Positions 7,101 to 64,000 of a DNA stretch of 64,000 bases are shown here, piece by piece. Source of the DNA: Xanthostigma xanthostigma (taxonomy: Eukaryota > Arthropoda > Insecta > Raphidioptera > Raphidiidae); NCBI GenBank assembly GCA_963575645.1, contig OY754468.1:48433665-48497664 (forward strand). The letters run 5' to 3'. The position numbers and the translations under genes were made by a program. Below the pieces are notes generated by a model. The model saw nothing but the letters and a program-made list of their open reading frames with translations. It searched no databases and was not told where the DNA came from. Positions within the stretch are counted from its first letter, which is position 1; every line of letters starts with the position of its first letter.

Positions 7101-9764
7101 TCTTTAATTGTAAGTTAACTAACCTCAAAAATAACATATGACATAAGTGTTATAAAATATCACAAGAAGTGAATAATCGCAACAAAAATTTAAGCGACAC
7201 GGTGATTATTTAATTCAAGTTTATATTCTCTTTGATTTAAGAAGACGTGACGTCATTTGGTGTTTCAGTCAACAAGGTCGATTGCAGTATTTTGTACTTT
7301 TATTAAAAATCTTATAAATCTCAATGTTTATATTAACACTGGATCATTTTTTAGAATCCTTTCAACATATATTTTTCAATAAATAAAATTATCGACCAAT
7401 TTTTCAGACAATAGATATATTAACAAAAAATATAATTAATACATTAACGTTTCGATCCGGATTTGGATCTTCTTCAGAACGGATCTAAAAATATAAAAAA
7501 ATAATTAATATTTAGTTTCTATTTATTTTTTGTTAATATATTGTCTGAAAAATTGGTCGATAATTTTATTTATTGAAGAGTTCTAATCAGACGTTAATCA
7601 AAGATTTGAACATATATTTTTCCCTAAAACTATTTACTATTTTATTCTTTTATACTGTCATCATGCCTATTGCTTATAAATTTTAAAAATACATTTTTTC
7701 ATAGAAATTAGAGATTGCATTATGCGGGTGAATGAGGAACAGCTGGTGAACAGTCACCTTGAGTACCTATTATACGTTATTAGTTTTGCAAAAACTGATA
7801 ATTCCCGTTTAAATTTTCAGGTCACTATAACCGGTTTCGATTTGAGCGACTATCGTCAGTGCATGGTGACGTGGAATCGAGCCGCTCAAAGGATGTACGC
7901 TCAGTGCGAAGTTTTGGGCGCGCACCGCTGTATGCGGGTGCCGTATGAACAATTGGTGCTGCATCCTCGTGCCTGGATGACCAGGATATTGCGTTTTCTG
8001 GACGTCGCATGGAACGAGAGCGTGTTGCATCACGAAGAGTTCGTCAATAAACCAAACGGAATACTTTTATCGAAGTTAGTTGATCGACTTAAGAGGGTAG
8101 TACAGTGTAGAGGGCAGTGGTGTTGTGCTAATTTTTTTTTTACCGGAACGCGTATATATAATTATATAGACAGGGCCGATCCTGGGTAGGCGGCCGCTCT
8201 GTGCGGTTTCATGTCCCAAATTTAACGACGGGGGGGGGGGGGGGGGGTGAAAAGAGGTAAAAAACTAACTGAAATACATTAACATTATTTTTTTCATTGT
8301 TTGGAATTTTTCTATTTGTTGGCACATTGTTACAAATTTTTTCAATTGTTATGTCGATTTGAGAAAAAAAAAACAAATTACAAAATCCTAAAGTAAGATT
8401 TACATTATTTTTTTCATTGTTTGGAATTCTCGTTATCAGAAATCATCTTTAGTTCCGGAACGCGTTTGTGTCCAAAAAGGAAGTACCGGAACGACGTTCC
8501 GTAGCGTTCCGGCTTGACAACACCACTGGTAGAGGGGTTAAAATGAAGGGTGTTTTTGAAAATTCATTGTGACTTAAATATAAAACTGAGAATTTTCATA
8601 TTAAGTGTTATTGTTAAGCTATGTTTCAGGTACAATTCCTTTTTTGAAAAAAATAATTTGCTCCACTAAGTGGCCCAGTACCGACAATCTTGTAACTTAA
8701 GCAAAAAAGGGATCGCGGAGGGCGGACACTCTAGTTGCTCTTCAACGGCTCTTAAAAAAAAAAAAAAAACGAGTGTGCTTTAGATCACACGACTGAAGTA
8801 AAACTTCTTCCTGCAATAATAATATTATTTTTCACCCGAAAATTCACAAAATTTTAACTTTAAAATGATTTTACAATTTTAGTCACTTTTAACGTAGAAT
8901 ATTTAATGTATTGAACAAAATATTAATTTATAAAATTGTTCAAGAACGAAATGAACAGTCTAATGTAAGAAGAAAGAAATATAAACATAAAGATAATGAA
9001 AACAAAAGTATTGCAATTACTTAGCTCTCGTTGGATTTTAAGCGTAAATCTTTATGAAATATTATTTAAAGTAGGTTTGCAAAACTTTTTTCTGTCACGC
9101 GATAGCGCCAAATAGCGCAAATAAAGTATGTGTCATTCTATTGTTAGTACTGCTTATATTTTCGGCCACCTAATGGCGCCACTAGCCAGTGAAGTATTTG
9201 TCATCCTCTTTCTATCTTCACTAACTTATATCTCCCTCTCAACGTCCGTTCGCCTCGCCCGATCACACTTCCGTAAATCTCTCGTCAGGCATTCCCCAGC
9301 TTACTCCCCAAGTCAAGCGTGCGTAAAGAAGTTTTACTTCAAAAAAATTACTAAAATTCTGCTTACATTATACTTGAATGCCCCCTCTGAAGTGATATTC
9401 AGTTATCTAATCTTTTGTTTTTGTAATCAGGGTAGAAAGATCATCGGATCAAGTGATCAAGCCAGTAAATTTGGAGGCTCTAAGCAAATGGGTCGGCCAA
9501 TTCCCCGAAAGCGTCGTCCACGACATGGCTAAACTGGCGCCAATGCTGCAAGTGTTGGGATACGACCCAAACGCCAATCCGCCCAATTACGGTTCCCCGG
9601 ATTCACAGGTTGTCGACAACACAAGACAAGTTAACGCCGAAAGCGACAAGTGGAAACAGCGCGCCAATCAACTATTGAGAAAAGACGCCACTGCATCCGA
9701 TTATCACGATCAACTTGACAAGATGTTTCTTGGTGACGTCACCGATACACCGGAAGTTGCGTGA
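4032..9764 (+). CDS. Tango13: tyrosylprotein sulfotransferase (TPST), last four coding exons
   Basis: Coding exons are 4032-4162, 5595-5898, 7821-8074 and 9431-9764. All junctions are GT-AG and the reading frame is continuous (340 residues visible). The enzyme transfers sulfate from PAPS to tyrosines of secreted and membrane proteins in the trans-Golgi. Visible motifs are the 5'-phosphosulfate loop PRSGTT (fragment residues 26-31), CGQETR with the glutamate equivalent to the catalytic base Glu99 of human TPST2 (fragment residue 48), CNKDPF, the 3'-phosphate loop [12 protein letters not shown], and [19 protein letters not shown] near the C-terminus. The catalytic region is very close to fly and human TPST. 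The N-terminal cytosolic tail and signal anchor are missing: no hydrophobic exon was found upstream, so that exon most likely precedes the window. The C-terminal tail is short compared with the glutamine-rich Drosophila tail. Confidence 0.95.
4177..4499. mobile_element. hAT-type MITE with 8-bp target duplication
   Basis: Terminal inverted repeats are CAGGGGTCGGTAACC and GGTTGCCGACCCCTG. The 8-bp duplication GTATAGAT lies at 4169-4176 and 4500-4507, the hAT hallmark. It sits in TPST intron 1, 14 bp past the donor. No transposase is present. Confidence 0.92.
4881..5545 (-). repeat. dispersed repeat with tRNA-like segment, copy 1
   Basis: Starts ACTAGCGGTCCCGCCCGG and ends near AACAAACTCTTCAGC. 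The second copy is at 15741-16334. On the minus strand about 5224-5290 reads GGGTAGCTCAGTCGGTAGAGC followed by a degenerate B-box-like GGGTCAAGCCC, so part is tRNA-derived; the anticodon arm is deleted. It lies 50 bp before TPST exon B. Confidence 0.7.
5595..5898 (+). CDS. Tango13: TPST exon B (catalytic Glu, 3'-phosphate loop)
   Basis: The acceptor is GTTGTTATACAG and the donor AAG|GTTCTC. It encodes [11 protein letters not shown] through CNKDPF and [17 protein letters not shown]. Its GC content is clearly above that of the flanking introns. Frame is phase 1 in, phase 0 out. Confidence 0.95.
5967..6437. mobile_element. GAAGTGAAAACTTC-end MITE with nested hairpin
   Basis: Ends are GAAGTGAAAACTTCTTTAG and AAGTGAAACTTC. 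The subterminal GGCACTCCCGGAGTTCAACC block is shared with 36683-36946 and 47638-48208. Inside, 6139-6358 forms an inverted repeat with arms of about 50 bp (GCAATATAAGTTACATGCAG and its complement). Confidence 0.75.
6477..6814. mobile_element. hAT-type MITE with 8-bp duplication
   Basis: Ends are TAGAGCTGTAA and TTACAGCTCTA. The 8-bp duplication ATAATTGT is at 6469-6476 and 6815-6822. The subterminal CGTATGTATTCGTTAC motif is also inverted. It lies in TPST intron 2. Confidence 0.88.
7378..7608 (-). mobile_element. short Penelope-like hairpin element, copy 1
   Basis: This 231-bp element is flanked by a 14-bp duplication, AACATATATTTTTC, at 7364-7377 and 7609-7622. Inverted arms of about 60 bp (ATTATCGACCAATTTTTCAG and complement) surround a hammerhead-like core. 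One end carries a unique 34-bp tail containing TCTAATCAGACGTTAATC, shared by the copies at 48888 and 63360. Long duplications suggest target-primed reverse transcription. The Penelope assignment is inferred from the core motif plus inverted arms. Confidence 0.8.
7449..7477 (-). ncRNA. hammerhead-ribozyme-like core
   Basis: Minus strand reads CTGAAGA, one unpaired A, GATCC, loop AAATCC, GGATC, then GAAAC. This matches the CUGANGA / stem II / GAAA order of hammerhead ribozymes known from Penelope-like elements. Stem III and the cleavage site are not obvious, and the extra base may reduce activity. Confidence 0.45.
7821..8074 (+). CDS. Tango13: TPST exon C
   Basis: The acceptor is TTTAAATTTTCAG and the donor AA|GTTAGT. 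It encodes [15 protein letters not shown], then [12 protein letters not shown], and ends [12 protein letters not shown] then ILLSK. All are strongly conserved in the family. Confidence 0.95.
8110..8530. repeat. CAGTGGTGTTG-end repeat, copy 1
   Basis: Shares the TACAAATTTTTTCAATTG unit and the CCGGAACGACGTTCCG end block with 25681-26140. An 18-base G run is at about 8230-8247. The ends carry GTGGTGTTGT and its complement ACAACACCAC. Confidence 0.7.
8794..9343. repeat. MITE with GAAGTAAAACTTC ends
   Basis: GAAGTAAAACTTCTT at the left and AAGAAGTTTTACTTC at the right are inverted. These ends resemble the family at 5967. The interior has no coding potential. It fills most of TPST intron 3, followed by a fragment (9345-9385, CTAAAATTCTGCTTAC) shared with 28.1 and 30.8 kb. 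Confidence 0.6.
9431..9764 (+). CDS. Tango13: TPST last exon
   Basis: The acceptor is TTTTTGTAATCAG. It encodes [20 protein letters not shown], then [13 protein letters not shown] and a variable charged tail ending TDTPEVA, with a TGA stop at 9762-9764. A long foldback repeat begins about 95 bp after the stop. Confidence 0.95.
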
Positions 9765-13082: not shown

Positions 13083-16000
13083 GTAAAAATAATGTATATT
13101 TAGTTTCTGTTGATAATATGACTATTGAAAAAAGATCGATGCAGTTTTGACATTTAAACCTCGCTTTGTAAAACACGGGCTGTCACAAATTCAAAACATA
13201 CGTTTCCGACGCGCTAAAAGACGTCTGTGTATAGTGCTATCTCTTTCTCTTGCATGATTTCTATCGGTCATTACATGTATACGTATGCTGTGTTTATGCA
13301 TTTTTTAATAAATCTAATATCTTCCAACCATAATATGATTTCTTTATTTTTCTAGGTGATTTTTTAGGCAAAATATTCGCTATAGTTAGTTTAGCACCGT
13401 TTGGAATTGTAGCTGGGTTTATAACTCTAATTTTATTCCGCAGAGATCTACACACGGTACGTATTTCTGTTGTAGGTTTTCTTGTTCTGTAATTCTGTAT
13501 GCTCACTTGCGATTCAATTTTTAGATAACATTTTTTATCGGATCTCTGTTATGCGAAGCACTTAACTATAGCCTCAAACATACAATATGTGAGGCGCGTC
13601 CTTTGATTCGACAAGCCGTTTATAACGAGTACGGAATGCCCTCATCGCATGCCCAGTTCATGTGGTTTTTTGCATCGTACGTCGTTTATTTTGTACTCAT
13701 CAGGTTAGTACAAATTATTTCACAGAAACAATTTAGACTTTAAAAGCTCACCCCTGATTTTGTCAACGAATAATCGTAGACGATCGACATTTCATAAACA
13801 TAATCCTAATTTCAATATGTATCTAAACGGTTGTATTTGTTCGGAAGAAAGAACCAACGTCCTAATCAACTGAAACTTTGAATTTTCGTATACTTATAGA
13901 CTGTGTTTGTTATTTTATTGAACTCATGCGCGTTATTAATGTTTTATCATGCCTAAAAACCGAACCCTAAATAGCCATTTACCGACTGGTGACAATTACT
14001 TGTCATAACTCAATGAAGATTCCTACTAGCTCGGCCATTGTGGAGTAATGAAAATAAACGTAACTATTTTCTGAGTCGTGACGAAATAGTAGGTAACAAC
14101 AACTCCGTTGTTACCCATTGAGACTAAAATTGAGAGGCCGAATGTTTTCGACATGGAGTTTATTCATAACCGGCTAACCTCAAACCAAAACATTGAATCG
14201 TGCTGTTTGGTGCTGTTAGTATTGACAGTTTTTTTTATAAAGAAATAAATAGATATTTACAACATCTCATAATTACAACATGAATAACGCGCAATTGTTG
14301 AATAAAATTATGGGCGCAACTTGTAGGCTAAGTCATGACCTGTCAGCGCCATGAATGACTTAGACTACTAGTTACGCCAATAACTATTTTTCAATCGATA
14401 CATTAACAAATACTTTAATAGACATGGCAAAATATAACTGTAGTATTAGATTAGCTGAAGCTTGCACTGGTTGTAAATTTAACTGGATTTTTGACGTGAT
14501 AACGTCTTATAAATTGATGAAACACCGGCTGCATGCACGAAAAAGTGTAACGTTCCGCCTGAGCGTGCAAGCGAGAGCGCGATATAAGCGATAGAGAGGC
14601 ACGATCAGCAATGGCAATATGGCGCTAATAACAATTAATAAATGTCATTTTATTTTGTTAAAAATAACTGATCGCCGTCATTATGGATAAAATATGATAT
14701 TATTCACAACGAATGGAAATGTATTGATCAATTGATAGTTTGTACACAAACGCAGCTACATTTTGTATCACAAAACAAATCTTGGGAGATATCCGCATTT
14801 CATAACAGCAGATAAATTATACGGTTTGTTAACAAATATATAATATACATACATTCTTTTAAATGTCTTTTATAATTGCTTAAAAATATGTATTTTGCTT
14901 TGGTTGATCAAATTATTAGTCGGTAAAAATATAGTTTGACAGCTACTAAAATTTAGGTTATGTATTATTAAATATGATATTCGAGCGGAATACGTTATCA
15001 CGTAAAACTATCGTCCGTAAACCGACTTTACAGACAACCAATTTTTTTTGCAGATTACATCATTTGAACAACAATACAATAATTGAAAATGTATCAAAAT
15101 TAACGATAATATCGACGAGTGTCATGTCAGCTGTGATCGTTTGCATCGCAAGAATTTACTTGCAGTACCACACTATCGGGCAGGTGCTCTGTGGTGCCGT
15201 TGTTGGATTCCTTTTTGCCAGTGTTTGGTTTAGTCTTACCTACTTGGTGTTCACCCCCCTTTACCCTCAAATCGTGTCATGGTAAGTCATATACTCGCTA
15301 GTAACAAGCCCTAGATACCTCTTTATTTTAGCCGGTCACTGATCACAAGTTTTTATACATCGAAGCGTTTGATGTACAACATCTTCGATAGTGTGTTGTT
15401 TTTATTTGTGTATGACCTTGAATGAATAGGGAATATACTGAGATTTGACGTGAAGGTTATACTTCTATTTTCTGCCACCAGATGTCATAGTGTCAAATAT
15501 CAGATCAGAATAATGGAAAATTTCGATACTCTGCGAATATGGGGAACATTCGAAAAGGGATTTTCAATCGTTTTGTGCAAAGCCGTAAAAATATATTTCT
15601 TTAGTACCAAGTTTATATTTTTTATTAGATGACGCATTGTATGGTATAATATACAGGATGTTCTCTGCCCTACATTTAAAGGAAATCAAATTCATTTTTA
15701 TTAAACTCGAGAATAAGACACGGTATTTTGTTTATAATTAACTAGTGGTCCCGCCCGGTTTCACCCGGGTGTAAAAGAACGAATGGGGAAGGGAGGAACA
15801 TAAGTACACACATTCATCTTAGTTTACCGAGATGAATGTTGTGTCCAAATTTCATGATGATTTACCGTTCAAAAGCTTTGTCGATAAAAAGCAGTATTTA
15901 TACTTTTTTTAACTAATATATATTTTTTTTAATTAATTAAATAAAATTAAAGTAAATTTAAATGTAAGCCCTAGAAGAAAGCAATGTAGAAAAAAAAATA

Positions 16001-17064
16001 AAAATATATTCGCCCAACGTAGGGCTCAAACTCACGACCCTGATATTGCCAGTCGTGTGCTCTACCGATTGAGCTAGCCGGCGTTGTATTCTGGCAACGC
16101 TAATATGAGTATATTTAGTTAGTGCATTTCACCTGAATAGAAGCTTATTTTTGAGATACATTTTGCAACATTTTTCATTAATGCTCCGCTCCGAATGGTC
16201 GTAGCCTGATTTTATATAGCCTATAGCCTTCCTCGATAAATGGGCTATCCAACAAAAAAAATGTTTTTCAATTTGAACCAGTAGTTCCTGAGATTAGCGC
16301 GTTCAAACAAACAAACAAACTCTTCAGCTTTATATACAGTAAACCCTCGGTAACACGAACACGGTTAACACGAATTTCGGTTTAATGCGAACAAAAATTT
16401 GCTCTCGACAATGGTCACATAAGCTTTAATGTAATTATATTCGGTTAACACGAACCCTCGTTAATACGAACTTCTTACTACTTTTTCGTCCCTTCACGGT
16501 TAATTATCGGATAATACGAACTACAAAAATTCTCAAATCATATATTTTGATCATTTTGGTCAATGAATATACAATACAACTAAAAGAAAAGATTCGCTTA
16601 AGGGATTACAAAAGTAATTAACTCACATTCTAAAAATAGACAAAGGACTGAGAGATTAAAAATTCACTCGAAATCCTATAAATAAAAACAAACTTTCAAA
16701 CTCAGGTAATATTTCAGAACAATTAATGTTATTAGATAATTTATAATAAATAATTATTCAATGTTTACTTAAAATAAATCATGATTTGACACAAAAAATG
16801 ACTGTATTTTATGCCATACTCGGTTTACACGAACTCCCACATAACACGAACTTTTTGCCTGATTTTTACGAGTTCGTGTTAACGAGGTTTTACTGTATTA
16901 GTATGCATAATTAAGACTTTATACTTCGATACAGGAAAATATCCGAGTTCTTGCTATTACGAGACACGACGCTGATTCCGAACGTGTTGTGGTTCGAATA
17001 CACGAACACGCGACAGGAAGTGCGAGCGCGGAGTCGAAAACTGGTCAGCATGAAGTCTCAATGA
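12974..17064 (+). CDS. DOLPP1: dolichyldiphosphatase (DOLPP1)
   Basis: Five exons (12974-13082, 13356-13456, 13525-13703, 15054-15281, 16935-17064) join in one frame of 248 codons plus stop; the human protein has 238 aa. It removes a phosphate from dolichyl diphosphate at the luminal ER face so that dolichyl phosphate can be reused for N-glycosylation. The PAP2 phosphatase motifs are visible: KHTICEARP (88-96, K-x6-RP), PSSH (109-112), and ARIYLQYH (162-169) with the motif-3 arginine and histidine. Hydrophobic segments lie at about 41-64, 113-128, 147-163 and 172-198. The C-terminal [16 protein letters not shown] is nearly identical to the vertebrate form. The chosen ATG (context TCAAAAATGG) is followed by the family feature [13 protein letters not shown]; the open frame extends 64 codons upstream but without family similarity. 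Confidence 0.95.
13356..13456 (+). CDS. DOLPP1: DOLPP1 exon 2
   Basis: The acceptor is TTATTTTTCTAG and the donor ACG|GTACGT. It encodes [11 protein letters not shown] and the first membrane segment, ending FRRDLHT, matching vertebrate FKRELHT. Confidence 0.93.
13525..13703 (+). CDS. DOLPP1: DOLPP1 exon 3 (motifs 1 and 2)
   Basis: The acceptor is CAATTTTTAG and the donor AG|GTTAGT. It carries KHTICEARP and [14 protein letters not shown], the first two PAP2 catalytic motifs. Confidence 0.95.
13912..14391 (+). mobile_element. TAACTAG-family MITE, copy 1
   Basis: About 480 bp, repeated inverted at 34579-35062 and 40885-41365. One end has ACTCATGCGCGTTATT, the other TTACGCCAATAACTATT. Shared interior includes GGTTAGCCGG-type and GAAAACATTCGGC-type blocks. 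Non-coding, in DOLPP1 intron 3. Confidence 0.85.
14488..15049 (+). mobile_element. T-run MITE, long copy at a splice acceptor
   Basis: Begins TTTTTGACGTGATAACG and ends GACAACCAATTTTTTTT, immediately before GCAG of DOLPP1 exon 4. At 562 bp it is the longest copy and has an interior missing from the ~200-bp copies. Inferred empty site: the element entered the polypyrimidine tract of the exon 4 acceptor. Confidence 0.88.
15054..15281 (+). CDS. DOLPP1: DOLPP1 exon 4 (motif 3)
   Basis: The acceptor is TTTTTTTTGCAG and the donor TG|GTAAGT. It encodes [22 protein letters not shown] and [11 protein letters not shown]. The eight Ts before GCAG are also the right edge of a T-run MITE (14488-15049). 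Confidence 0.94.
15741..16334 (-). repeat. dispersed repeat with tRNA-like segment, copy 2
   Basis: Second copy of the family at 4881-5545. On the minus strand, 16082-16013 reads GCTAGCTCAATCGGTAGAGC, then a paired CACGA...TCGTG arm with an enlarged loop, then GAGTTTGAGCCCTACG. This looks like a decayed tRNA with A- and B-box-like parts. Confidence 0.72.
16337..16895. mobile_element. pogo-like MITE, copy 1 (TA duplication)
   Basis: Ends are CAGTAAACCCTCGG and CGAGGTTTTACTG with TA on both sides (16335-16336, 16896-16897). Subterminal GGTTAACACGAA motifs repeat. It inserted at the end of the tRNA-like repeat and lies 39 bp before DOLPP1 exon 5. A sister copy is at 62323-62942. Confidence 0.88.
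16935..17064 (+). CDS. DOLPP1: DOLPP1 exon 5
   Basis: The acceptor is CTTCGATACAG. It encodes [28 protein letters not shown], and ends VSMKSQ with TGA at 17062-17064. A pogo-like MITE ends 39 bp before it. Confidence 0.95.
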
Positions 17065-17934
17065 CATCTAGTCGGCCCTGCTGATGTGTGGGGACTCGTC
17101 GACGTGCGCGGCTTCCTGCACTGTGTGAGCACTTCCTTATATTGGCCGAGAAAACGATGAACATTTACACCGAACATGAACATTCTTACACCGTGTGTGA
17201 TAGGTTATAAAAAAAAGAATCGGACAATTTTCACGTTATAGATATTGTTGCAAGAATTTATCAGACCTGAATGTAACTGGCAGACAGCCGGACAAATGAC
17301 TGGGTCGCCAAAATAGAGAATATTTTGCGAAGGGTAGGTAATTTTTATAAAATAGGTCGTAATCAGCATCGATTTCAAGATCAGATGACTGATTAAATTC
17401 ACTAAGGTCAGCTGTACGTGGACTATTTCAAGCAGTCGAAACTGACTGAGTAGAATATTTTCTATGGAGGTTTGTAATCTCTGAAGAAAATATTCGACTC
17501 GACTGAAGCAGTCAGTACCTGGCTGAATATGACTAGAGAGGGAATAACTATCTAAATATGACTGAAAATCTGTTCTAGATGTTCAACACTAGATGGGATA
17601 GTACTCTCCCAAATATCAGCTATTTGTAGAATACCTACTCTTTGTTAAGTATAAAAATTGTATGTTTTCATTAAGTGTGTAAAAGTTTTCATTGTGAACT
17701 AGGGTTGGTCAAAAGAGCTGTCCGGTAACAAAAGTTGCCAGTTCGGGCCTGAAATTAATATTATATTTGAAGATTTAAAGCAAAGGTAATATTGATCGTA
17801 TTATTCCATCTCGAAATGTATTAACACATTCCAAAGGTAGCAAACAAAACAGTAAAATATTTTAAGTTTTAAATATCAAAAAATTAATAAATCAATCGAA
17901 TTGCCGTCTCTCGGCCATTAGAACTTTTTGACGT
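17065..17934 (+). other. probable DOLPP1 3'UTR and downstream sequence
   Basis: No repeat family was seen. A short inverted motif pair (AGAATATTTTCT and AGAAAATATTCG with GACTG blocks) is near 17450-17515. An AATAAA near 17888 could be the poly(A) signal. The transcript end is not determined. Confidence 0.45.
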
Positions 17935-18126
17935 GATAGCGTCTTATAAATTGATGAAACACCGGCTGCATGCACGAAAAAGTGTCACGTTCCGAAATGT
18001 GTCACGTTCCGCCTGACAGCTACTAAAATTTAGGTTATGTAATTATTAAATATGATATTCGAGCGGAATACGTTATCACGTAAAACTATCGTCCGTTAAC
18101 CAACTTTACAGACAACCAATTTTTTT
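17935..18126 (+). mobile_element. T-run MITE, copy 3
   Basis: Begins CTTTTTGACGTGATAGCG and ends CAACCAATTTTTTT. It carries an internal duplicated GTGTCACGTTCCG. The next copy begins 22 bp later in the same orientation. Confidence 0.85.
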
Positions 18127-18148
18127 GCGTTTATTTACAGATGCGTAA

Positions 18149-18350
18149 TTTTGACGTGATAACGTCTTATAAATTGATGAAACACCGGCTGTATGCACGA
18201 AAAAGTGTCACGTTCCGAAATGTGTCACGTTCCGCCTGACAGCTACTAAAATTTAGGTTATGTAATTATTAAATATGACATTCGAGCGGAATACGTTATC
18301 ACGTAAAACTATCGTCCGTAAACCGACTTTACAGACAACCAATTTTTTTT
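18149..18350 (+). mobile_element. T-run MITE, copy 4
   Basis: Nearly identical to the copy just before it. Together they form a direct pair separated by TTTATTTACAGATGCGTAA, suggesting local insertion or duplication. Confidence 0.85.
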
Positions 18351-18984
18351 AAATCGATATATTAAAACGAGCATCGATGTACGATTAATCGAATACTTTT
18401 GCTTTCGATCGTTCTTTTCAGACATTACTAATAAGAGAACAATGTAGTATATTTATGTTGTGAGATTTTCATTCTTATTTATTTTTACTATACTAGGTAA
18501 GAAACAAATGAAGTTTAATGTCATTTTGCAGTGTTTTTAATTGTGTGATACTTTTTCAATAAATATTCATTGACCATTCGTACGTAATAAATAGGATCTC
18601 TCGATTGTCATTTCCATAAAGGTTCTATTTCAAGGGTCTAGTTACCAAAAGATGGCATGGATTGTTTTTTTTGACATAAATGTAACATTGACTTAACAAC
18701 TAAGATTAATATTTATAAAACTTTGTAAGGACTGTTTTTCTATTGACGAAACTGCATATTGTTATACTTTCATTTTTTGTCACCAGATGTCATAGCGTCA
18801 AGTGTCAAATCCCTGTACACTGACACATAAATATCTCCAAAATTAGTTGCGAGGATCTGCACAGAATTTTTAATAAGAATCTGGACAGGAGATATTTTAG
18901 TTTTCATTTAATTTCGTAGATTAGAATAGGTCCGATCTTCGATTCGAGCTGTACATTACGCATAGAAGAGAAAATAAGAAGGAA

Positions 18985-19690
18985 AATACAGTCTAACCTC
19001 TTTATAATGAATCTCAAGGGACCGAGCATTTTTTTTTTGACGTGATAACGTCTTATAAATTGATGAAACACCGGCTGCATGCACGAAAAAGTGTCACGTT
19101 CCGAAATGTGTCACGTTCCGCGCACGATCGGCCCAAGTTTGACAGCTACTAAAATTTAGGTTATGTATTATTAAATATGATATTCGAGCGGAATACGTTA
19201 TCACGTAAAACTATCGTCCGTAAACCGACTTTACAGACAACCAATTTTTTCGTTATAAAGAGTTTTGGTTATATGGAGGGAAGAAAGAAAAATAACCAAA
19301 TTTCATCTAATTAATTTATTCCAAACGCATATAGTCTGTTAACTTTGCCTGACGTTTTTTTGCTATGCCAATATTTGTTTAGTATTTTATTAAGTATCTT
19401 AATGGTGGAATCATCTTCATTAAACAATAGGAATTTTTCGATAAGTTTGGCGGCATCAAGTGCTTGTTGAATAGTTGGTGATGGTTCAGAATCGTCCTCT
19501 TTACGTCTGTAAATATTTGCTGACGCTTAAATATGAACATATTTCTTCTTCGTAATAGAGAATGGCTATTGCGCTATAAAGAGGGTATTAATGTATGGGT
19601 TTTAAGGTAAACCAACCAAATTGTAAGAATTTCTACGTTATAGGGAGTTTTTCGTTATAACGAAGGACGTTATAAAGAGGTTACACTATT
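18985..19690. mobile_element. CTCTTTATAA-end element with nested MITE
   Basis: Ends are AACCTCTTTATAATGAATC and CGTTATAAAGAGGTT. Internal TTCGTTATA blocks repeat. The T-run MITE at 19029-19250 interrupts it. Ends of this kind are typical of Tc1/pogo-group elements; the assignment is by resemblance. Confidence 0.65.
19029..19250 (+). mobile_element. T-run MITE, copy 5 (nested)
   Basis: Begins TTTTTTTTGACGTGATAACG and ends ACCAATTTTTT inside the 18985-19690 element. Removing it restores a T-run between GAGCA and CGTTATAAAGAG. Confidence 0.85.
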
Positions 19691-26399: not shown

Positions 26400-29300
26400 G
26401 ACGATAATCAACTTGATGCACGTAAGTTCCAACAATGGGGATTGGGGGTCGCCATTGGCGTAGCAAGAGGAGGGTCAGGATCATAATTTCATGCTTCTAG
26501 AGCCCCCTGGATTAGGCTGCGCGGGTCAGTCAATATTAGAGTTTTACGTAAGTATATTAACCCCCTTAGAGGATGAATTTTCAAAAATAATTTCTTAGTG
26601 CTCACTTACACCATATAGGGGACTTCTGTACAAAATTTCATGCTCTTAGATCCACCGGGCACCGGCTTAGGCTGTCTGTGCGTTGTACGTCAGTCCAGTG
26701 TTAAAGTTTTAACAAGTAGATTACCCCCGTAGGGGATGAATTATCAAAAATCTTGCAAAATTTCATGCATTTAAACCCACCGGTTTAGGCTGTGTCTTGT
26801 GACCTTGTCTGTGCTTTAAAAGGAACACTTTTTTTTATTAAGAAATAAAGTAAAAAGTAAATTTTTCAGACAAAAAGGTAAATATTAGAAATTTGCTATC
26901 CGGCACCCAGAACCAGTTAAGAGGTATTTATAGCGAGTAAAACAAGTCGACTATATTATACATATTATATAGTTGCATACGGCAAGTAATACAGAGCAAC
27001 GGATCTCAGCTATCGAGCGTCTATAATCTATCCTCTATATCTAGTGGATATAGATAGATCGATTGTAGGTTATAGACGCTCAACAACTGAGTAAGAGGGT
27101 ATATATTGTCTTTAAAATACATATTTTACATTCTGTCATGTGTAAATAATAAAAAATAATTGTATTAAGATAATATGTAGATTACAGACGCTCGACAACT
27201 TGAATTATTAACGTCTGCAGCAAAATTAATGGATAATATAAACATTATGACAATATTTATAACAAAATAAGAATATTACAAATCAACGATATAAAAGTGG
27301 ATAGATTACAGACGCTTGAAAACTTAGTTAATTATCGAAACGAAGGTAGGTACTACGTAAAAAGAATTTTATCTCTAACTAGCCGCTACCCGCGGCTCCA
27401 CACGCTATTGAGATGAAACAGGACGGCGACAACCGTTTTGCAGTACAACTTTTAAACACCTTGGATGTTTTTTTTTTGGGTCCTCTTTGGGGATGAATAT
27501 TCAAAAATCCTTTCTTAGTGCACACCTACTTTGTAGAAGGAAGTCCTGTGCACAACTTCATGCTTCTAGACACACAGGTTTAGGCTGTGCGTTGTACGTC
27601 AGTCCAGTGTTAAATTTTAAACTAAGTAGATTACCCCTCATAGGGGTGAATTTTTAAAAATCTTTTCTTAGTCCTCACCTACGTTATAAAAGGAACCCCT
27701 TTGCAAAATTTCATGGATTTAGACCCACCGGTTCAGGCTGTGCGTTGTCTGTTAGCCTTTAGAGAGACTTTTTTCATTAATAAAGTGAAAAAAGGTTAAA
27801 TTGACAAATATCAGAAATTTGCTATCCAGCTCCCAGAAACAGCAGGAGGTATTTATACCGAATAAAACGAGACGTCTGCCTGTTATCTAATTTTGTATAT
27901 TTTTAAAATTTAAACCCCTTCCACAGTCAGGGCCGGACTAACCCACAAGTCTTAAATTTTTGTAAAAATTAGTAAATAGTAAAAACCATACTATTAATAA
28001 ATAGTACATGAATTTGCTATGAAATATTAGTAAAAGTATCAGTATTGATACTACAATTCGTAGGGGACCATTCAAGCATTACGTAAGCAAAATTTTAGTA
28101 ATTTTTGACACCCCCTCCCAATTGTCAGCAAAAGTAAGCAAAATAAGCTAAGCAAAGACGCCCCCCTCTTTGGTGTTTACGTAGTACTTGAATGGCCCCT
28201 AGATCAGTTAACTATAAACTATAAAAAATTAATATTTTTATTAGTTGTCCTTTTTGAAATAAGAAAAATAGTTGAAAAAAAGTAAATTAAAATTTTTTTT
28301 TGAGTGTATAATAAGAATTCTAAATTAATCGGAAAAATTAGTTTTTAATAAAAAGAAACATAAGAACACATTATTATTAAATTTTAGAATAACCATATGA
28401 AAAGCAACACATTTTTGTTTATTTGTTTATTATGCACAGTATTTCAACAGAAAAGTAAACTATATTGTTTACAAATCTGTTCAAAATAGACAGTTTGACC
28501 GCGTCCGTTCTAAAAACCGGGCCCTAGACATTTGTCTCATTTGCCTATACAATAATCCCCGGCCCTGCCTACAGTATTGCAATTGCATAATTGTCTTAAA
28601 ATTCGTCTTTGACTCAAAGACGAATTTTAAGACTATTATACAATACCTATTGCAATACTATGGGCAGTGCCGGATTATTGTATAGGTAGACAAATGAGAC
28701 AAATGTTTAGGGCCCGGTTTTTAGAAAGGACCCGGTAGCCGGTCAAACTGTCTATTTTGAACAGATTTGTAAACAATATAGTTTACTTTTCTGTTGGGTA
28801 ACTGTGTATAACAAACAAATAAACAAAAATGTATTGCCTTTTATATGGATATTCTAAAATCTAAAGAAAACGTGTTCTTATGTTTCTTTTTGTTAAAAAC
28901 TAATTTTTCCTATAATTTAGAATTCTTTTTGTACACTTAAAAAAAACATATTTGAATGAACTTTTTTTTCAACTATTTTTCAGATTTCAAAAATGCCAAA
29001 GTGGGTTAGTCCGGCCCTGACTGTGGAAGGGGTTAAAATTTTAAAAATATACATAATTAGATAACAGACTGACGTCTTGTTTTATTCGCTATAAAAATAC
29101 CTCCTAACTGTTTCTGGGAGCTGGATAGCAAATTTCTGATATTTACGTTTTTTTCGAAATTTTATCGCTGTAATTTCTTAATAAAAAAAGTCTCTCTAAA
29201 GGCTGACAGAACCCGCATAGCCTAAATCGGTAGGTCTAGAGCAATGAAATTTTGCACATGAGTTCCTTATATAGGATGTGTACTAAAAAAGGATTTTTGA

Positions 29301-32300
29301 AAATTCATCCCCTAAGGGGGGTTTAATCTACTTAGTTAAAAGCTCTAACATTGACTGACCGTACAACGCACAGCCTAAGCCGGTGAGTCTAGAAGCATGC
29401 TATATTGCACATATCCCCTATATTCAGGGGTGTCAGACTGATTTTTCTAAAGAACCATTGAGTTATAAGATTAGGGTGTGTTAGCGGACCAGACTAAATT
29501 AAAAACTAAAACACATACTAAATTAAAATCTTTATTTATTTAGTTTAAATAAATTTTCATATGAAGGTAATAACAAGAGTAAATTATCTTGAGCTCCTTG
29601 AGCTTGAGGATCCAGATACCTGAGGTCTCTTGTTTTTGATAAGCTCATTGATGTCAGGTGTCATATTTGAGGTAGTTATTTTCAGAATTGATTCTGATCG
29701 CGGGCTGTATTGACAGGGCCGTCTTTAACCTATTGGAGGCCATGGGCACATTAGGATAATGGGGCCTCTATGACCTTTTTATATTATTAAAGAGAAAAAA
29801 AAAACTACAATCTTGAGATTATTGACAGGTGTTTGGGACAATTCTGCAAAACAAAACAAAAATATATCCAAACGGAAACACTGCAAATAGTATACATTCA
29901 AATATACCAAGCTTACAAGTATAAATTCTACGCGGACGAAGTCGTGGGTAAAAGCTAGTTTATGTATAAAATTATTATTTAGCTGAGCGCCTGATACTTT
30001 TGTGTTTATATTATTGACTGACGAATTTTTAAAGATTGCGTAATGTCGAATACCGCTTATACTGCAGTTCTAAATCAAAAGGTCATGTCTGTAATTTTAG
30101 TTTTGAAATGCTTATTTAGACTTGAAAAGCTGAAACATTAATTACTCTTTTGTTTACTGATGAAGCTTATTATGCATGCATAATATTTATGTAAATTATA
30201 TAGATTTAACACTGAAGTGATATATTATTTTGATGTTTAAATTTTTAATATCTACAAAAATACAAAAATAAAACCGTTTTGGTACCAAATTAATTAATAT
30301 TATACCTGCTTGTTTATATTTTGTCAGAGACGAATTTTTAGACTATTATGCAATAGGTACCTATTGCAATACTCTGGACAGGGCCGGGGATTATTGTATA
30401 GGTAAATGAGACAAAATCTAGGGCCCGGTTTTCAGAAAGGAGCCGGTCAAACTATCTATTTTGAACAGATTTGTAAGCAAGATAGTTTACTTTTCTGTTG
30501 GACAACTGTGTATAATAAACAAATAAACAAAAATGTGTTGCTTTTTATATGGTTTTTCTAAAATCTACGTAATGTATTCTTATGTTTCTTTTTATTAAAA
30601 ACTATTTTTCCGATAATTTAGAATTCTTTTTATACACTCAAAAAAATATATTTTGAATTTACTTTTTTTCAACTATTTTTCTTATTTCAAAAGGACAACT
30701 AATAAAAATATTAATTTTTTATAGCTTATAGTTAACTGATCTAGAGGGCATTCAAGTACTACGTAAGCACCAAAGAGGGGGGGGGGGGTCTTTGTTTAGC
30801 TTATTTTGCTTACTTTTGCTGACAATGGGGAGGGAGGGTCAAAAATTACTAAAATTCTGCTTACGTAATACTTGAATGGCCCCCTACGAATCGTAGTATC
30901 AATACTGATACTTTTACTAATATTTCATAACAAATTCAGGTACTATTTATTAATAGTATGGTTTTTACTATTTACTATTTTTTATCAAAAATTTAAGACT
31001 TGTGGGTTAGTCCGGCCCTGACTGTGGAAGGGGTTTAAATTTTAAAAATATACATAATTAGATAACAGGCAGACGTCTCGTTTTATTCGGTATAAATACC
31101 TCCTGCTGTTTCTGGGAGCTGGATAGCAAATTTCTGATATTTGTCAATTTAACCTTTTTTCACTTTATTAATGAAAAAAGTCTCTCTCTAAAGGCTAACA
31201 GACAACGCACAGCCTGAACCGGTGGGTCTAAATGCATGAAATTTTGCACAGGGGTTCCTTATGTAACGTAGGTGAGCGCTAAGAAAAGATTTTTAAAAAT
31301 TCACCCCTAAGAGGGGTAATCTACTTAGCTAAAACTTTAACACTGGACTGACGTACAACGCACAGCCTAAGCCGGTGTGTCTAGAAGCATGAAGTTGTGC
31401 ACAGGAGTTCCTTCTACAAAGTAGGTGTGCACTAAGAAAGGATTTTTGAATATTCATCCCCAAAGAGGACCCAAAAAAAAAACATCCAAGGTGTTTAAAA
31501 GTTGTACTGCAAAACGGTTGAGCAGGAGGCTGCACTACTGTTGTCGCCGTCCTGTTTCATCTCAATAGCGTGTGGAGCCGCGGGTAGCGGCTAGTTAGAG
31601 ATAAAATTCTTTTTACGTAGTACCTACCTTCGTTTCGATAATTAACTAAGTTTTCAAGCGTCTGTAATCTATCCACTTTTATATCGTTGATTTGTAATAT
31701 TCTTATTTTGTTATAAATATTGTCATAATGTTTATATTATCCATTAATTTTGCTGCAGACGTTAATAATTCAAGTTGTCGAGCGTCTGTAATCTACATAT
31801 TATCTTAATACAATTATTTTTTATTATTTACACATGACAGAATGTAAAATATGTATTTTAAAGACAACATATACCTACTCAGTTGTTGAGCGTCTATAAC
31901 CTACAATCGATCTATCTATATCCACTAGATATAGAGGATAGATTATAGACGCTCGACAGCTGAGATCCGTTGCTCTGTATTACTTGCCGTGTAACTACCT
32001 ATATAATATTATGTATTATAGTCGACTTGTTTTACTCGCTATAAACACCTCTTAACTGGTTCTGGGTGCCGGATAGCAAATTTCTGATATTTACGTTTTT
32101 GGCTGAAAAACTTACTTATTTCTTAATAAAAAAAGTGTTCCTTTTAAAGCACAGACAAGACACAGCCTAAACCGGTAGGTTTAAAATGCATGAAATTTTG
32201 CACAGGGGTTCCTTATATAGCGTAGGTGAGCACTAAGAAAAGATTTTTAAAAATTCACCCCTGAGAGGGGTAATCTACTTAGTTTAAAATTTAACACTGG

Positions 32301-46400: not shown

Positions 46401-49400
46401 ATCTTGCGGGACCTGTCAAGTGAACGGTTGCACCCGAAACTGGAGTCGCCAAGCGTGGACCGCTCAACTGGACCTGAAGATAATTAGCCAAGTTAAGCTG
46501 ACTACTTCCATACTTACATTTTTTTAAGACCGACCACTGATAGGATGGGTCCTTGTTCACATATTCTAATCCGCGAACTGGTGAAACTATCGACGGGTTT
46601 TTTTGATTCATCGTTAAAATATTTTTTTTGCACCGATGGATATTGTTTCGAAAGCGGAACGATCAAAATTTAACCTTGTAGACAGAAATTTTAGAATCCT
46701 ATCACTATACTTTGTTACCAAGCACGGAAGCAAAGATAATAAATTGGAAAAACGAATTAAGGGCGCAGGAAATTTTGAATCGTAGCATTCAAAAAAGCGT
46801 CTAAAACAATTTAAGTGAACTACTGAATGAGTGTCAATTATAGACGCTCGACAATTGAAATCATACGCGTTTATTTGATATACTGTATCATATTTCAGTA
46901 ATTTGTAGAAATACATTTTACACCTAAGAATTTATTTCATTGTTTTTGTATACAAAAATTTGATCACATATGCGAATTAAAATTACAAACATTAAAAAAA
47001 AGATGTTATCTTTAAACGCTTCCAAGAACGTTTAGTGGGAGCAATTTAGAACTGGACTGTGTAAAAATATTGTCCAAGCTGTACACTTAATAAATAATAT
47101 AATTTTGATAATGCTGATTAGATATCGCACTAAACAAAGACATACTATATTGTAATCTGACACTTTTTGTTATCTCGTAAATAATTACTATTAAAATCAG
47201 GTTCGTAACAAGTATGATAATAGTGTAGATTATAGACAAATAATTAATAGACAAATAACATGAACCATTTAAAATGTCTGACACCTCGAATATGTTCGCA
47301 TATTCGAGGTGTCAGACATTTTAAATGGTTCATGTTATTTGTCAGAGAACATTATTTTAGCGTTTTGGTTGGAGTTTTTAAGCTATCCAATTAAAAAACA
47401 AACAGTATCTATAAATTTTTTACATGTCGTCAAAACGACATCTTTCGGAAAATTTAGAGGGAAAACGCCCCGAAATCAAGAAAAATCATAGAGGAAATAG
47501 GTGTCAGACTAGGCCTAATGAAGCCATATACAAAGTTTGGGGAGAGTATGTATCAGTAAAATTTTTGCCGACGGGCACTGACTATAAGATCCCTATTCCC
47601 TAACTAATCTGAAGTGAAGTAAATGCCAAATTTGTAAAAAAAAGACGGGTTGCACTCCGGGAGTGCCGGCGGAAGTGAATATTAACGTCTTAATTTTTTG
47701 CATTTAGAAGCATTGTTTATTTATTGACAACACTTGTAAATAAAATGGCTTGTATCATAGATTGCATTTTTATGTACGATATTTTAACGCTAGATGTCTA
47801 ACGTTGTATAAAAAATAAAATGGTTTGTATCATAGATTGCATTTTTATCTACGATATTTCAACGCTAGATGTCTAACGTTGTATAAAAAGTATCTGGCAA
47901 TTACTATCACTTAGAGAGTCTCACCCAGTTCTTACTTTTCCTGACGCAAGTTTAACATTTTTTACCCATTACAAAAAAAGTGTACAACGCCGCTAAAGAA
48001 GTTTTGTAAATAAAATGGTTTGTATCATAGATTGCATTTTTATGTACGATATTTCAACGCTAGATGTCTAACGTTGTATAAAAAGTATCTGGCAATTACT
48101 ATCACTTAGAGAGTCTCACCCAGTTCTTACTTTTCCTGACGCGAGTTTAACATTTTTTACCCATTACAAAAAAAGTGTACAGCGCCGCTAAAGAAGTTTT
48201 CACTTCAAAAAAATCGATTGGGGGATCAGTTCTACGCGTTTCGCCTAGTAGGGCAAAACTATTATATCATTTGTAACAATAAATATTTACTAATTAAGCT
48301 ATCAATGCAACCCAATCAGATTTTCGTCTATAACCTCGAGAACATTTTTTTAAACCAATTTTGCTCTAAATATGTTAAATGTTGATAAATGCAACAAGAT
48401 CTATTAAAAGCTTGAAAACAGAATTGAACTGATTTCAATACTATCTTATGTACAAATATAGAATTGAAAATATTGTCGTCTTTTGGGGAAACTCATTGAC
48501 TTAGCTGTTTACTTCCGCTTAAAAAAAGACTTGTGCCACCTCTGGTCAATATGATTCATTATAATCGGTGGACGGTGACATACCTATAGTATTAATTCAT
48601 TTAAAAAATTACTTCAAAAGTGTGAATTGTAATTCCAACAATCTAATAATAGAATTAAATAAAATACAACATTTTCGTTTAAGATCTTTGTCTGCCAATT
48701 GCTATAAATTAAGTTCTTACAAAGTGTAACTAATACAGTCAAAACTATCTGTAATGAAACTCAAGAATCGAGGGATTGAGCAATTGTTTTCGTTATAAGG
48801 AGTAAGTATCGATTCATAAGAAAAATTAACACAGTTAAACTAGTATTTATTTTATAGAGTTTAGACTGTAATTAAAAACCTTTTATAAATAAAATTATCG
48901 ACCAATTTTTCAGACAATTATTAACAAAAAAATATATAATTAATACATTAACGTTTCGATCAAAACGTTAATGTATTAATTATATATTTTTTTGTTAATA
49001 TATTGTCTGAAAAATTGGTCGATAATTTTATTTATTGAAGAGTTATAATCAGACGTTAATGAAAGATTTGAAAAACCTTTTATATTCGCCATGGGAACTG
49101 ATTCGTGCTCTCTGGTGGCAGAAAATAAAAGCTGTATATGCTTTAATCACATTTATATATTTCATCTGACAGTTTATTGTAATGACTATGAGTGAACTAA
49201 AGAAAAAGAATTTATTCTTTTCTGAGATCTGTGCATCTAATGCATGTATATCATTGTTACAAATAAATTTTAAAAAAGGATAAGAATTTAGGATTTAGTT
49301 AGGTTAAAAAGGATTTCATAATGACAGTTAGCAAATTTTCATCATTATGGAATATGGAAAAAAAACTTTTTTATTTAATGAAAAAAATGAAAAAAAAAAT

Positions 49401-62700: not shown

Positions 62701-64000
62701 TTTATTGAAATGTATTTTGTAAACAAATAAAAACAAACTTTCAAACTCAGATAATATTTAAGAACAATTAATGTTATTAGATAATTTATAATAAATAATT
62801 ATTCAATGTTTACTTAAAATAAATCATGATTTGACACTTAAAAAATGACTGTATTTTATGCCATACTCGGTTTACACGAACTCCCACATAACACGAACTT
62901 TTTGCCTGATTTTTACGAGTTCGTGTTAACGAGGTTTTACTGTAATAGAAATAAATGAACAATTTTTCAATAAAATAGTTTCTTTGTTTTATTGTGCCTT
63001 TCTGATTGCAGCGCCGCTATTATGAACTAAAATCGTAACTTCAATACCACCTGTGTTAATCATATTACAGTGGCGGCGGAATGACTTTAGGGCGGGGAGG
63101 AGCTTAAGCACGAAGTCTTTAATCAGGAGACCACTTGCTGTGTTTAGAGATGGAGCGTTTTCTGGGGCACGCGAGATGGCGCTGTTCTTTCCACCTGTTT
63201 TTGCCATAGTTACCAAAGTTGTTTTAATTCTCAGACACTACATACATGCAAATCATGAACGTGTGTGTTACCCAGTAGCTGACGCCATATTAGTTCATGC
63301 GACAGATATCGGTCCACCGTTATGCTCGAGCTGGTTCTCCTGGTTATGACTTCGTGGTAATAATAAATAAAATTATCGACCAATTTTTCAGACAATATAT
63401 TAACTAAAAAATATAATTTTTTTTTATATTTTTTTTTAATATTTTTTAGATCAGTTCTGAAGAAGTTCCAAATCCGGATTGAAACGTTAATGTATTAATT
63501 ATATTTTTTTGTTATATTGTCTGAAAAATTGGTTGATAATTTTATTTATAGAAGAGTTCTAATCAGACGTTAATCAAAGATTTGAATTCGTGGTATTAGG
63601 CTATAATTTTGGAGGGGATTTGACCGCAGTCAAGATCAAGTATGCATTGTGACGATTCGCTATTAGAATATGTTAGACGGAGAAGCGTGCAATTTCTAAG
63701 CGACTGAGAGTCGTGTTACGAAAGTACACCTACCCTGTATTTCCAGGCATGTAAATACATAACCAAGTCTTGTGGTTTTGGATCTCTATAGCGCACTTTG
63801 CACTCGTAACAGTGTTTGTCTACAGTCATTTTATCTGGATTGAATGCGAGGTCAGGCGCTTCGTGGCCCGTTTGTGTAGCTACCGTCACTTTAGCACTAC
63901 TTCTGCACGCAGGTAGTGTGGACATAGCCGATAAACCCATGTTCGCCCCTTCGCAAGCCACGTCGTCGCATGGAGACGGTTCACGTGATACGGGTTCCGC
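59713..64000 (-). CDS. unrecognised protein, C-terminal 112 residues
   Basis: Two exons, 64000-63734 (open at the window edge) and 59784-59713, join in phase 0 across a 3.95-kb intron. The donor is CAGG|GTAGGT and the acceptor TTTTCCAG. The C-terminus reads KHCYECKVRYRDPKPQDLVM, YLHAWKYRGPGWEYETELPE, WAKVDWTEDTE. The single C-x2-C pair, the many aromatic residues and the sharp rise in GC suggest a conserved C-terminal domain. The 40 residues before it are serine- and alanine-rich. I do not recognise the family. Confidence 0.8.
59785..60679. other. intron of the unknown gene, repeat fragments
   Basis: Contains AGTGGCAGAAAATGAAAG (end fragment of the 49082 family) at about 59931 and a AAATTAAAATTAAATCATTA segment also seen near 37780. 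No exon recognised. Confidence 0.5.
60680..61112. mobile_element. foldback element
   Basis: AAGAGTATTCGTCCCTGCAA to TTGCAGGGACGAATACTCTT with arms of about 175 bp and a loop of about 90 bp. Only one copy is in the window. Confidence 0.85.
61372..61770. repeat. tandem array, three units
   Basis: CCCGAAGTCTGATTAATTTG begins units at 61372, 61529 and 61647 (spacing 157 and 118 bp), each running to GGACCCCCAGGATTAATAAA. A GTGTGTATGTATGT microsatellite precedes it. Confidence 0.9.
61780..62010. repeat. palindrome, relative of 51605-51785
   Basis: Arms include TATAAAGCGTGTTTTTTAG and AAAAAGCGTTGGGCGC, with loop CGATGTACGAAAATGTGGAA. Joined to the tandem array on its left, so both may belong to one element. 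Confidence 0.82.
62323..62942. mobile_element. pogo-like MITE, copy 2
   Basis: CAGTAAACCCTCGTTAAC to GTTAACGAGGTTTTACTG with TA at 62321-62322 and 62943-62944. About 60 bp longer than 16337-16895 owing to an internal segment near 62680-62740. Confidence 0.9.
63360..63586 (+). mobile_element. short Penelope-like hairpin element, copy 3
   Basis: Flanked by TTCGTGGTA at 63351-63359 and 63587-63595 (9 bp). Arms and 3' tail match 7378-7608, in which the core lies on the opposite strand. Confidence 0.82.
63457..63485 (+). ncRNA. hammerhead-ribozyme-like core, copy 2
   Basis: CTGAAGA, one A, GTTCC, loop AAATCC, GGATT, GAAAC. Stem II is weaker than in the 7449 copy (one mismatch and a G-T pair), so it has decayed. 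Confidence 0.42.
63734..64000 (-). CDS. unknown gene, penultimate exon (partial)
   Basis: Eighty-nine codons remain open to the right edge, beginning AEPVSREPSPCDD and ending YLHAWKYR. The reading frame has no stop and continues beyond the window. Confidence 0.78.

What the first reader, a model, noticed from the sequence alone, without database searches (positions are those of the whole stretch)
7378..7608. Tiny retroelement: inverted arms around a hammerhead-ribozyme-like core, with 14-bp target duplication
Seen: 14-bp direct repeats flank a 231-bp element whose ~60-bp arms are inverted, and CTGAAGA-hairpin-GAAAC sits between the arms on the minus strand. Known: Penelope-like elements carry hammerhead motifs in their terminal repeats, which may be inverted, and make variable target duplications. 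Inference: this is a non-autonomous element made of little more than inverted terminal repeats and a ribozyme core. I do not know of it being described in this form.
Basis: partly seen in the sequence, partly recalled or inferred. Interest (0 to 1): 0.78.

Follow-up and report, generated by a model that had tools for sequence, protein, structure and literature searches.

The report
Mirror-image Penelope retroelement insertion
This 231-base insert is a short, non-coding copy of a Penelope-type jumping gene that seems to be copied from RNA into both cut ends of the target at once, leaving a mirror-image scar with a ribozyme motif; comparing copies turns a poorly understood way of jumping into something testable.

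Summary
In detail: 7378-7608 has 14-bp flanking repeats, inverted arms, and on the minus strand a minimal hammerhead core. Two more copies lie in the window (48888-49070, 63360-63586).

It is not a free-standing inverted-repeat element. It looks like a 5'-truncated insertion of a Penelope-like element (PLE) of this genome. Longer copies with the same ribozyme, arm and 34-bp "tail" carry a reverse-transcriptase/GIY-YIG reading frame. The genome holds 7,559 ribozyme cores and 15,886 tails (3 mismatches or fewer; control 0).

The copies read are mostly two cDNA-like arms of one RNA region meeting head to head. The junction differs in 59 of 59 scored copies, with more microhomology than shuffled pairings. 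Of 62 two-armed copies 57 have exactly one tail, 5 none, 0 two. Target duplications are mostly 13-14 bp.

Best reading: the PLE primes reverse transcription on both target strands, from two start sites 34 nt apart, and the two cDNAs are joined. PLE ribozymes, tails and inverted pseudo-LTRs are known; I did not find this dual-priming reading, or the one-tail rule measured, in what I read. RNA cleavage and the order of events were not tested.

The parts
7364..7377 (.). left copy of the target-site duplication AACATATATTTTTC
   Evidence: automatic search (14 of 14 identical)
7378..7530 (-). left cDNA arm (long, without tail), RNA sense on the minus strand, from the proximal RT start to the junction
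7436..7487 (-). minimal hammerhead motif with helices I and II; core CTGAAGA-A-GATCC-AAATCC-GGATC-GAAAC; predicted cleavage between minus-strand 7446 and 7445 (GAAACGUU/AAUG)
   Evidence: helix I pairing test; cleavage not tested
7524..7530 (.). junction microhomology TATTTTT, which fits both arms
7524..7608 (+). right cDNA arm (short), ending with the tail; RNA sense on the plus strand
7575..7608 (+). 34-bp tail GAAGAGTTC...AAAGATTTG, on one arm only; in a longer PLE copy (L086) the same 34 nt end 26 nt before an ATG
7609..7622 (.). right copy of the target-site duplication
48888..49070 (+). second copy in the window: near-perfect palindrome, tail on the right, 14-bp duplication AAAAACCTTTTATA at 48874-48887 and 49071-49084
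63360..63586 (+). third copy: long arm, ribozyme and tail all on the right-hand (plus) arm, so the ribozyme points the other way relative to the tail than in the first copy; duplication TTCGTGGTA (13 bp with 1 mismatch)

Best explanation
The insert is a 5'-truncated, non-coding insertion of a Penelope-like element (PLE). Shown: longer copies with the same ribozyme, arm and tail carry RT + GIY-YIG reading frames; most copies examined sit between duplications of about 13 bp; two-armed copies are two outward-pointing arms of the same RNA region; the junction is different each time; one arm, never both, carries the 34-bp tail. Inferred mechanism: the GIY-YIG nuclease cuts the two target strands about 13 bp apart, leaving 3' overhangs. 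Each 3' end primes reverse transcription inside the PLE RNA, one at the distal start (end of the tail) and the other at the proximal start about 34 nt upstream. Both cDNAs run towards the RNA's 5' end and often stop early. Their 3' ends are joined through short microhomology and filled in. That gives a mirror-image insert with one tail, a target duplication, and the ribozyme on whichever arm ran far enough. Both cDNAs probably come from one RNA or sister RNAs of one locus.
For: PLE identity: L084 (2.17 kb, 838-bp arms 100% complementary; same core, arm and tail) holds an open frame with RVT_1 (E 1.9e-5) and GIY-YIG (E 0.0012), both under Pfam's curated cut-offs. The genome gave 121 scored matches to this frame (119 of 3506 candidates scored), with open frames to 800+ aa. 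L086/L087: ORF end, ribozyme, arm, tail, 26 nt, ATG of the next ORF. Dual priming: of 81 loci with an arm match in sets 1 and 2, 62 have arms in the order minus-plus (outward) and none in any other two-arm order; of these 62, 57 have one tail, 5 none, 0 two; 59 of 59 junctions distinct among copies with alignment fit 0.7 or more; microhomology 2.07 nt against 1.13 (sd 0.25) when arm ends are shuffled, 0 of 2000 as high (30 of 32 copies); duplications in 53 of 58 against 32 of 3306 mismatched pairings, 40 of the 53 being 13 or 14 bp. Arms of one copy resemble each other more than arms of different copies (arms of 65 nt or more, n = 24, 0 of 5000 permutations; arms of 45 nt or more, n = 39, 19 of 5000). 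Among the 100 ribozyme places listed, 13 of 13 neighbours within 5 kb are head to head; among 121 ORF matches, 15 of 19 neighbours within 6 kb. A purified PLE cleaves and extends both target strands and starts RT at two internal sites that bound the tail (PMC11167929, parts 1-2 of 4 and passages).
Against: That same paper saw no start-site difference between top and bottom strands in vitro, so it does not predict the one-tail rule. Not all copies fit. C2:46845880 is a palindrome whose second arm ends inside the pLTR and could come from hairpin self-priming. Of 20 tail-selected copies, 11 have the usual outer arm, 4 have an inverted arm that lacks its outer part, and 5 show no inverted arm in 550 bp by my motif search; a duplication by the same score was found in 6 of the 11. 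So the regular tail-less end in sets 1 and 2 is partly a matter of how two-armed copies were picked. Junctions coincide within 1 nt on both arms in 2 of 1711 pairs (shuffled mean 0.92) and within 3 nt in 13 (8.15), a slight excess. L105 has a weak second arm of 21 nt in direct orientation. In copies whose tail is on the longer arm, self-priming is not excluded by arm lengths alone. Ribozyme activity was not tested; the 57-nt piece alone does not fold stably into helix I (z -0.42). 23 of the 35 C1 loci with an upstream match fit the L087 type best, at only 74-85% identity, so the exact source subfamily of many short copies is unsettled.
Confidence: 0.75

Rival explanations
1. Hairpin self-priming: one cDNA (or antisense template) folds back on itself and is copied into its own mirror image, as proposed for rotifer Penelope elements.
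For: Proposed in PMC3846280 (passages read) from palindromes at inverted junctions. By eye, C9:15660080 joins at a natural AAATT-CATT-AATTT hairpin, and C2:46845880 looks like a fold-back with an incomplete second arm. L135 and L140 are near-perfect palindromes.
Against: The tail sits on the shorter arm in 26 of 34 one-tailed copies of set 1 (chosen by similarity to a copy of that type) and in 11 of 23 of the C1 set. There neither arm can be a copy of the other: the short one has a tail the long one lacks, and the long one has inner sequence the short one lacks. Where the usual outer arm is present, its end lies directly next to the duplication.
Confidence: 0.15
2. A non-autonomous family with inherited inverted terminal repeats (a MITE-like or retrozyme-like unit) that moves as a whole.
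For: High copy number and a common size near 230 bp among the best matches; strong foldback; a slight excess of near-coincident junctions.
Against: 59 of 59 junctions distinct; ribozyme orientation relative to tail varies; 0 of 13 neighbouring ribozyme pairs among 100 listed places in direct tandem; relatives encode RT/GIY-YIG.
Confidence: 0.04
3. Dual priming as above, but from a short dedicated RNA (SINE-like) rather than from the full PLE RNA, so that the short copies have their own source genes.
For: Most copies read here are short. Only 4 of the 40 C1 loci show the ORF in the 586-701 bp read (L094, L116, L117, L131), and the upstream parts of the short copies form several types.
Against: Arm lengths vary with no common 5' end that I could see in the scored copies. 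L094, and in the tail-selected set L145 and L149, carry the ORF; in L149 it runs into an upstream stretch of the short-copy type (by eye).
Confidence: 0.1

Closest known systems
Penelope-like elements, EN-containing Penelope/Poseidon type (D. virilis Penelope, A. vaga Pen families, Anolis PAc)
   Same: RT + GIY-YIG frame, pLTR with a minimal hammerhead, optional 30-40 bp tail on one of the inverted pLTRs, AT-rich targets, partial tandems, target duplications (PMC3846280 passages; PMC11167929 parts 1-2 and passages; PMC6155905 passages)
   Different: Here many insertions are so short that only the mirror-image pLTR pieces remain; duplications are mostly 13-14 bp (8-10 bp cases are given for A. 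vaga); no two-armed copy has two tails; clade not determined by a tree
Retrozymes (plant LTR type; metazoan non-LTR type)
   Same: small non-coding retroelements with hammerhead motifs (PMC7229834, passages read)
   Different: metazoan retrozymes are direct tandem repeats that give circular RNAs; here neighbouring ribozymes are head to head, with no direct tandem among 13 neighbour pairs of the 100 listed places
L1 twin priming (recalled, not tested)
   Same: second target strand primes RT on the element RNA, giving an inverted segment
   Different: there the inverted part comes from a different stretch of the RNA; here both arms start at nearly the same place and overlap in sequence

Membership tests
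Penelope-like elements | one frame with telomerase-like RT and C-terminal GIY-YIG endonuclease in full copies | tested here: met
   the element in the window itself has no coding part; Pfam scores in L084 lie under the curated cut-offs (24.9 of 29.6 and 19.6 of 22.6 bits); the full frame was not read through
Penelope-like elements | pseudo-LTR / partial tandem arrangement | tested here: met
   L086/L087: ribozyme, arm and tail on both sides of an 835-aa open frame
Penelope-like elements | 30-40 bp tail on one of the inverted pLTRs | tested here: met
   34 bp; one tail in 57, none in 5, two in 0 of 62
Penelope-like elements | hammerhead motif in the pLTR | tested here: met
   architecture only; cleavage not tested
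Penelope-like elements | RT groups with PLE RTs in a tree | not tested
   no reference PLE proteins were fetched; domain and motif resemblance only
Hammerhead ribozyme | Rfam hammerhead model above gathering score | tested here: not met
   none
Hammerhead ribozyme | conserved core with helices I and II | tested here: met
   helix I pairs 27 of 32 over eight motifs, permutations as high 2 of 40320 (L058 and L060 are close relatives and the register of L061 was set by eye); helix II of 4-6 bp plus one extra base after CTGANGA in each hit (hits in 22 of 30 GIY-YIG loci), 0 hits in reversed loci
Hammerhead ribozyme | self-cleavage of the transcript | not testable with these tools
   needs a bench assay; the PAc motif cleaved only with its protein present (PMC11167929)
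MITE / terminal-inverted-repeat DNA transposon | shared interior and inherited terminal repeats | tested here: not met
   59 of 59 junctions distinct
Retrozyme | direct tandem ribozyme units | tested here: not met
   13 of 13 neighbours within 5 kb among 100 listed places are head to head

The most novel reading that the evidence does not exclude
PLEs integrate by symmetric two-ended target-primed reverse transcription: a paired complex makes two cDNAs from one RNA source, starting one at each of two fixed sites 34 nt apart in an obligatory asymmetric pair, and the insert's mirror form and single tail are the direct footprint. This would make the inverted pLTR with one tail a signature of mechanism and not an oddity of single copies.
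Probability: 0.6. Interest if true: 0.7.

Novelty: new member of a known kind. Interest (0 to 1): 0.55.

Why it matters
[quoted passage not shown] Inverted pseudo-LTRs and the one-sided tail were described at the latest in 2013 (PMC3846280), there with a self-priming proposal. A genome with 15,886 tail matches gives a large natural experiment: the junctions, the tail rule and the near-constant 13-bp duplication are quantitative constraints that any mechanism must meet. It also warns annotators that such inserts can pass for MITEs or for new non-autonomous ribozyme elements.

Tried and rejected
Rfam at gathering and relaxed thresholds gave no hammerhead. A first covariance model (R1) had helices one to two columns out of place; it was not used and was rebuilt as R2. 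An arm+tail match beside another PLE's frame in L076 looked like the source pLTR; L083 shows what looks like a separate short insertion there, though no duplication above chance was found for it (score 6). L081 and L082 were fetched on the wrong side and not used. L048-L050 around three longer-looking matches have no match to the L084 frame. MITE, retrozyme and self-priming were considered and set aside for the reasons given above. The idea that the tail-bearing arm is the trailing, shorter cDNA was not borne out in the C1 sample (11 shorter, 12 longer of 23). The idea that ribozyme cleavage sets the cDNA ends was looked at by eye only: I saw no heap of arm ends at the predicted cut. Papers: searches. 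I read parts 1-2 of 4 and passages of PMC11167929, and passages of PMC3846280, PMC6155905, PMC7229834, PMC8969392 and PMC12910113; other papers only as search listings. A main paper on PLE hammerheads (Cervera and De la Pena 2014) is not held.
Full report
WHAT IS THERE. The window lies on contig C5 of a 623-Mb genome in 28 contigs; from size and content I take it to be an animal, probably an insect (inference, not tested). The insert at 7378-7608 lies between two copies of AACATATATTTTTC. Its arms are inverted (73 nt at 82%), and its strand folds far better than shuffles. The minus strand carries CTGAAGAAGATCCAAATCCGGATCGAAACG at 7448-7477. Two further copies are at 48888-49070 and 63360-63586. 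In the third copy the ribozyme lies on the other strand relative to the 34-bp tail. In the second the whole insert is nearly one palindrome.

HOW MANY. The 36-nt ribozyme core with up to 3 mismatches occurs 3794 + 3765 times in the genome, and the 34-nt tail 7949 + 7937 times; the reversed-pattern controls give 0. Each call lists only the first 100 places.

THE RIBOZYME. No Rfam hammerhead is found. PLE hammerheads are described as usually minimal, lacking helix III (PMC6155905, passages), which is my explanation for the Rfam miss. Of 30 loci chosen only by the GIY-YIG domain, 22 contain motifs of the form CTGANGA, one extra base, a 4-6-bp helix II, GAAA; the same scan of the reversed loci gives 0. 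Over the eight motifs compared (this element, six motifs from the GIY-YIG loci, and one at 40434-40485 of the window), the first four positions of helix I pair in 27 of 32 cases. Of 40,320 re-pairings 2 do as well (the true one and presumably the swap of L058 with L060, which share a strand), with a mean of 14.1. The register of L061 was set by eye. A model of the other families' motifs (seven sequences, this family left out) ranks the element first in the window at a rough E of 1.1e-4 and the third copy at 0.096. The predicted cut is GAAACGUU/AAUG. Activity is untested, and the piece alone does not fold stably into helix I.

WHAT ENCODES IT. A longer copy, L084, has 838-bp arms that are 100% complementary. 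It holds a 353-aa open frame with RT and GIY-YIG similarity (scores under Pfam's cut-offs), which is followed by the same ribozyme, arm and tail and a 13-bp duplication. The frame has 121 scored matches in the genome, many at 97-100% identity, with open frames up to 800+ aa. In another copy, C6:37066116, the order is short inverted tail-less arm, ORF end, ribozyme, arm, tail, 26 nt, ATG of the ORF, and at the far end ribozyme, arm, tail and the duplication TAATAATGGTATA (the duplication by eye). This is the published PLE anatomy. Of the 40 C1 loci 4 show the ORF, and of the 20 tail-selected loci 2 (L145, L149).

SAMPLES. Set 1: 39 genome copies most like the window element plus the 3 window copies. 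Set 2: the first 40 clusters of exact ribozyme cores on C1, taken without regard to structure. Set 3: the first 20 exact tails on C1. The C1 sets are chosen for intact motifs and so lean to young copies.

JUNCTIONS AND TAILS. Sets 1 and 2 are 82 loci; 81 have an arm match, and 62 of these have two arms, each time in outward order. Of the 62, 57 have one tail, 5 none, 0 two; in set 2 alone it is 23, 2 and 0 of 25. With independent tails at this frequency about 13 two-tailed copies would be expected (my arithmetic). Three poor fits (L041, L104, L121) were dropped; the remaining 59 have 59 different pairs of arm ends. Within 1 nt on both arms 2 of 1711 pairs coincide (shuffled mean 0.92), within 3 nt 13 (8.15), a slight excess that preferred joining sites could give. 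Of 45 loci offered, 32 were simple copies and 30 passed its fit limit; all 30 pairs of arm ends differ, and mean microhomology is 2.07 nt against 1.13 (sd 0.25) with shuffled partners. In set 3 none of 20 has a tail at both ends of one insertion; L151 holds what I read as two separate insertions. One set 3 copy (L143) is little more than the tail between 13-bp repeats.

DUPLICATIONS. 53 of 58 one-tailed copies have a duplication scoring 9 or more, against 32 of 3306 mismatched pairings. Lengths are 13 (29 copies) or 14 (11) in 40 of the 53; the others are 9-12, 15, 16 and 18. The sequences are 82% A+T. RT starts scatter over about 10-15 nt at both ends, within the limits searched. In set 3 it is 6 of 11 with the same score, against 0 of 110 mismatched pairings, and 3 of the 9 other copies (L139, L143, L153) show an exact 13-bp repeat.

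WHERE THE TWO ARMS COME FROM. Arms of one copy resemble each other more than arms of different copies: 0.051 against 0.076 for arms of 65 nt or more, n = 24, 0 of 5000 permutations. With 45 nt the gap is small (0.049 against 0.054, 19 of 5000). So both arms probably come from one RNA or from RNAs of one locus.

MECHANISM. A purified PLE cuts and extends both target strands and starts RT at two internal sites that bound the tail (PMC11167929). If both strands prime, one at each site, the result is what is seen here: two arms of the same RNA region meeting head to head, one tail, duplications, variable junctions. The self-priming model (PMC3846280) fails for copies whose tail is on the shorter arm (26 of 34 in set 1, a set biased to that form; 11 of 23 in set 2). 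It may account for some palindromes such as C2:46845880. Why only one tail is used is not explained by the published assay, which saw no strand difference. My inference is an asymmetric pair of RT units on one RNA source.

OTHER PLE FAMILIES of the same genome behave alike: the loci with two motifs on opposite strands (L060/L062, L073, L074, L075, L077/L078, L080, six distinct places) all have them head to head.

NOVELTY. Ribozyme, tail, inverted pLTRs and palindromic junctions of PLEs are in print. In the passages I read, and in the search listings, I did not find the mirror-image form explained as two convergent primed cDNAs, nor the one-tail and 13-bp rules measured. The library lacks most subscription papers, so this is no proof of absence.

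Noticed in passing
window 40434-40485 (minus strand): Another PLE-type hammerhead motif (CCGAAGA-T-GGCA...TGCC-GAAACGTC, 23.4 bits, rough E = 0.0032) with a C where the core has U4; possibly a pLTR remnant of a different PLE family.
   Followed up: partly
window 7820-8100 (plus strand): The stretch just right of the insert reads like a coding exon (recalled resemblance to protein-tyrosine sulfotransferase, not tested), so the insert may lie in or near a gene.
   Followed up: no
window 14488-19250, 1694-1852, 37539-42163, 51023-51100: A dispersed repeat with TTTTTGACGTGATAACGTCTTATAAATTGATGAAACACCGGCTGCATGCACGAAAAAGTGT... in several partial, both-strand copies; kind unknown.
   Followed up: no
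window 26979-32870: A large nested inverted-repeat block (arms of 389, 346 and 345 bp, 95-99% complementary, 3-5 kb apart).
   Followed up: no
G000:C9:15659800-15664700: A near-perfect palindrome of about 5 kb with two head-to-head 728-aa open frames, tail on one end only and a 13-bp duplication; ends and centre were read, the rest not.
   Followed up: partly
L144, L148, L152, L153: Tail-selected copies whose inverted arm starts some 30-60 nt further in than usual (by eye); L153 still has a 13-bp repeat. Could be a third start site or later deletion.
   Followed up: partly
L063-L080 (genome): A second PLE family with tandem and head-to-head frames of up to 804 aa and a different ribozyme (CTGAAGA-T-GAGAGC-ATA-GCTCTC-GAAATGTA).
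   Followed up: partly
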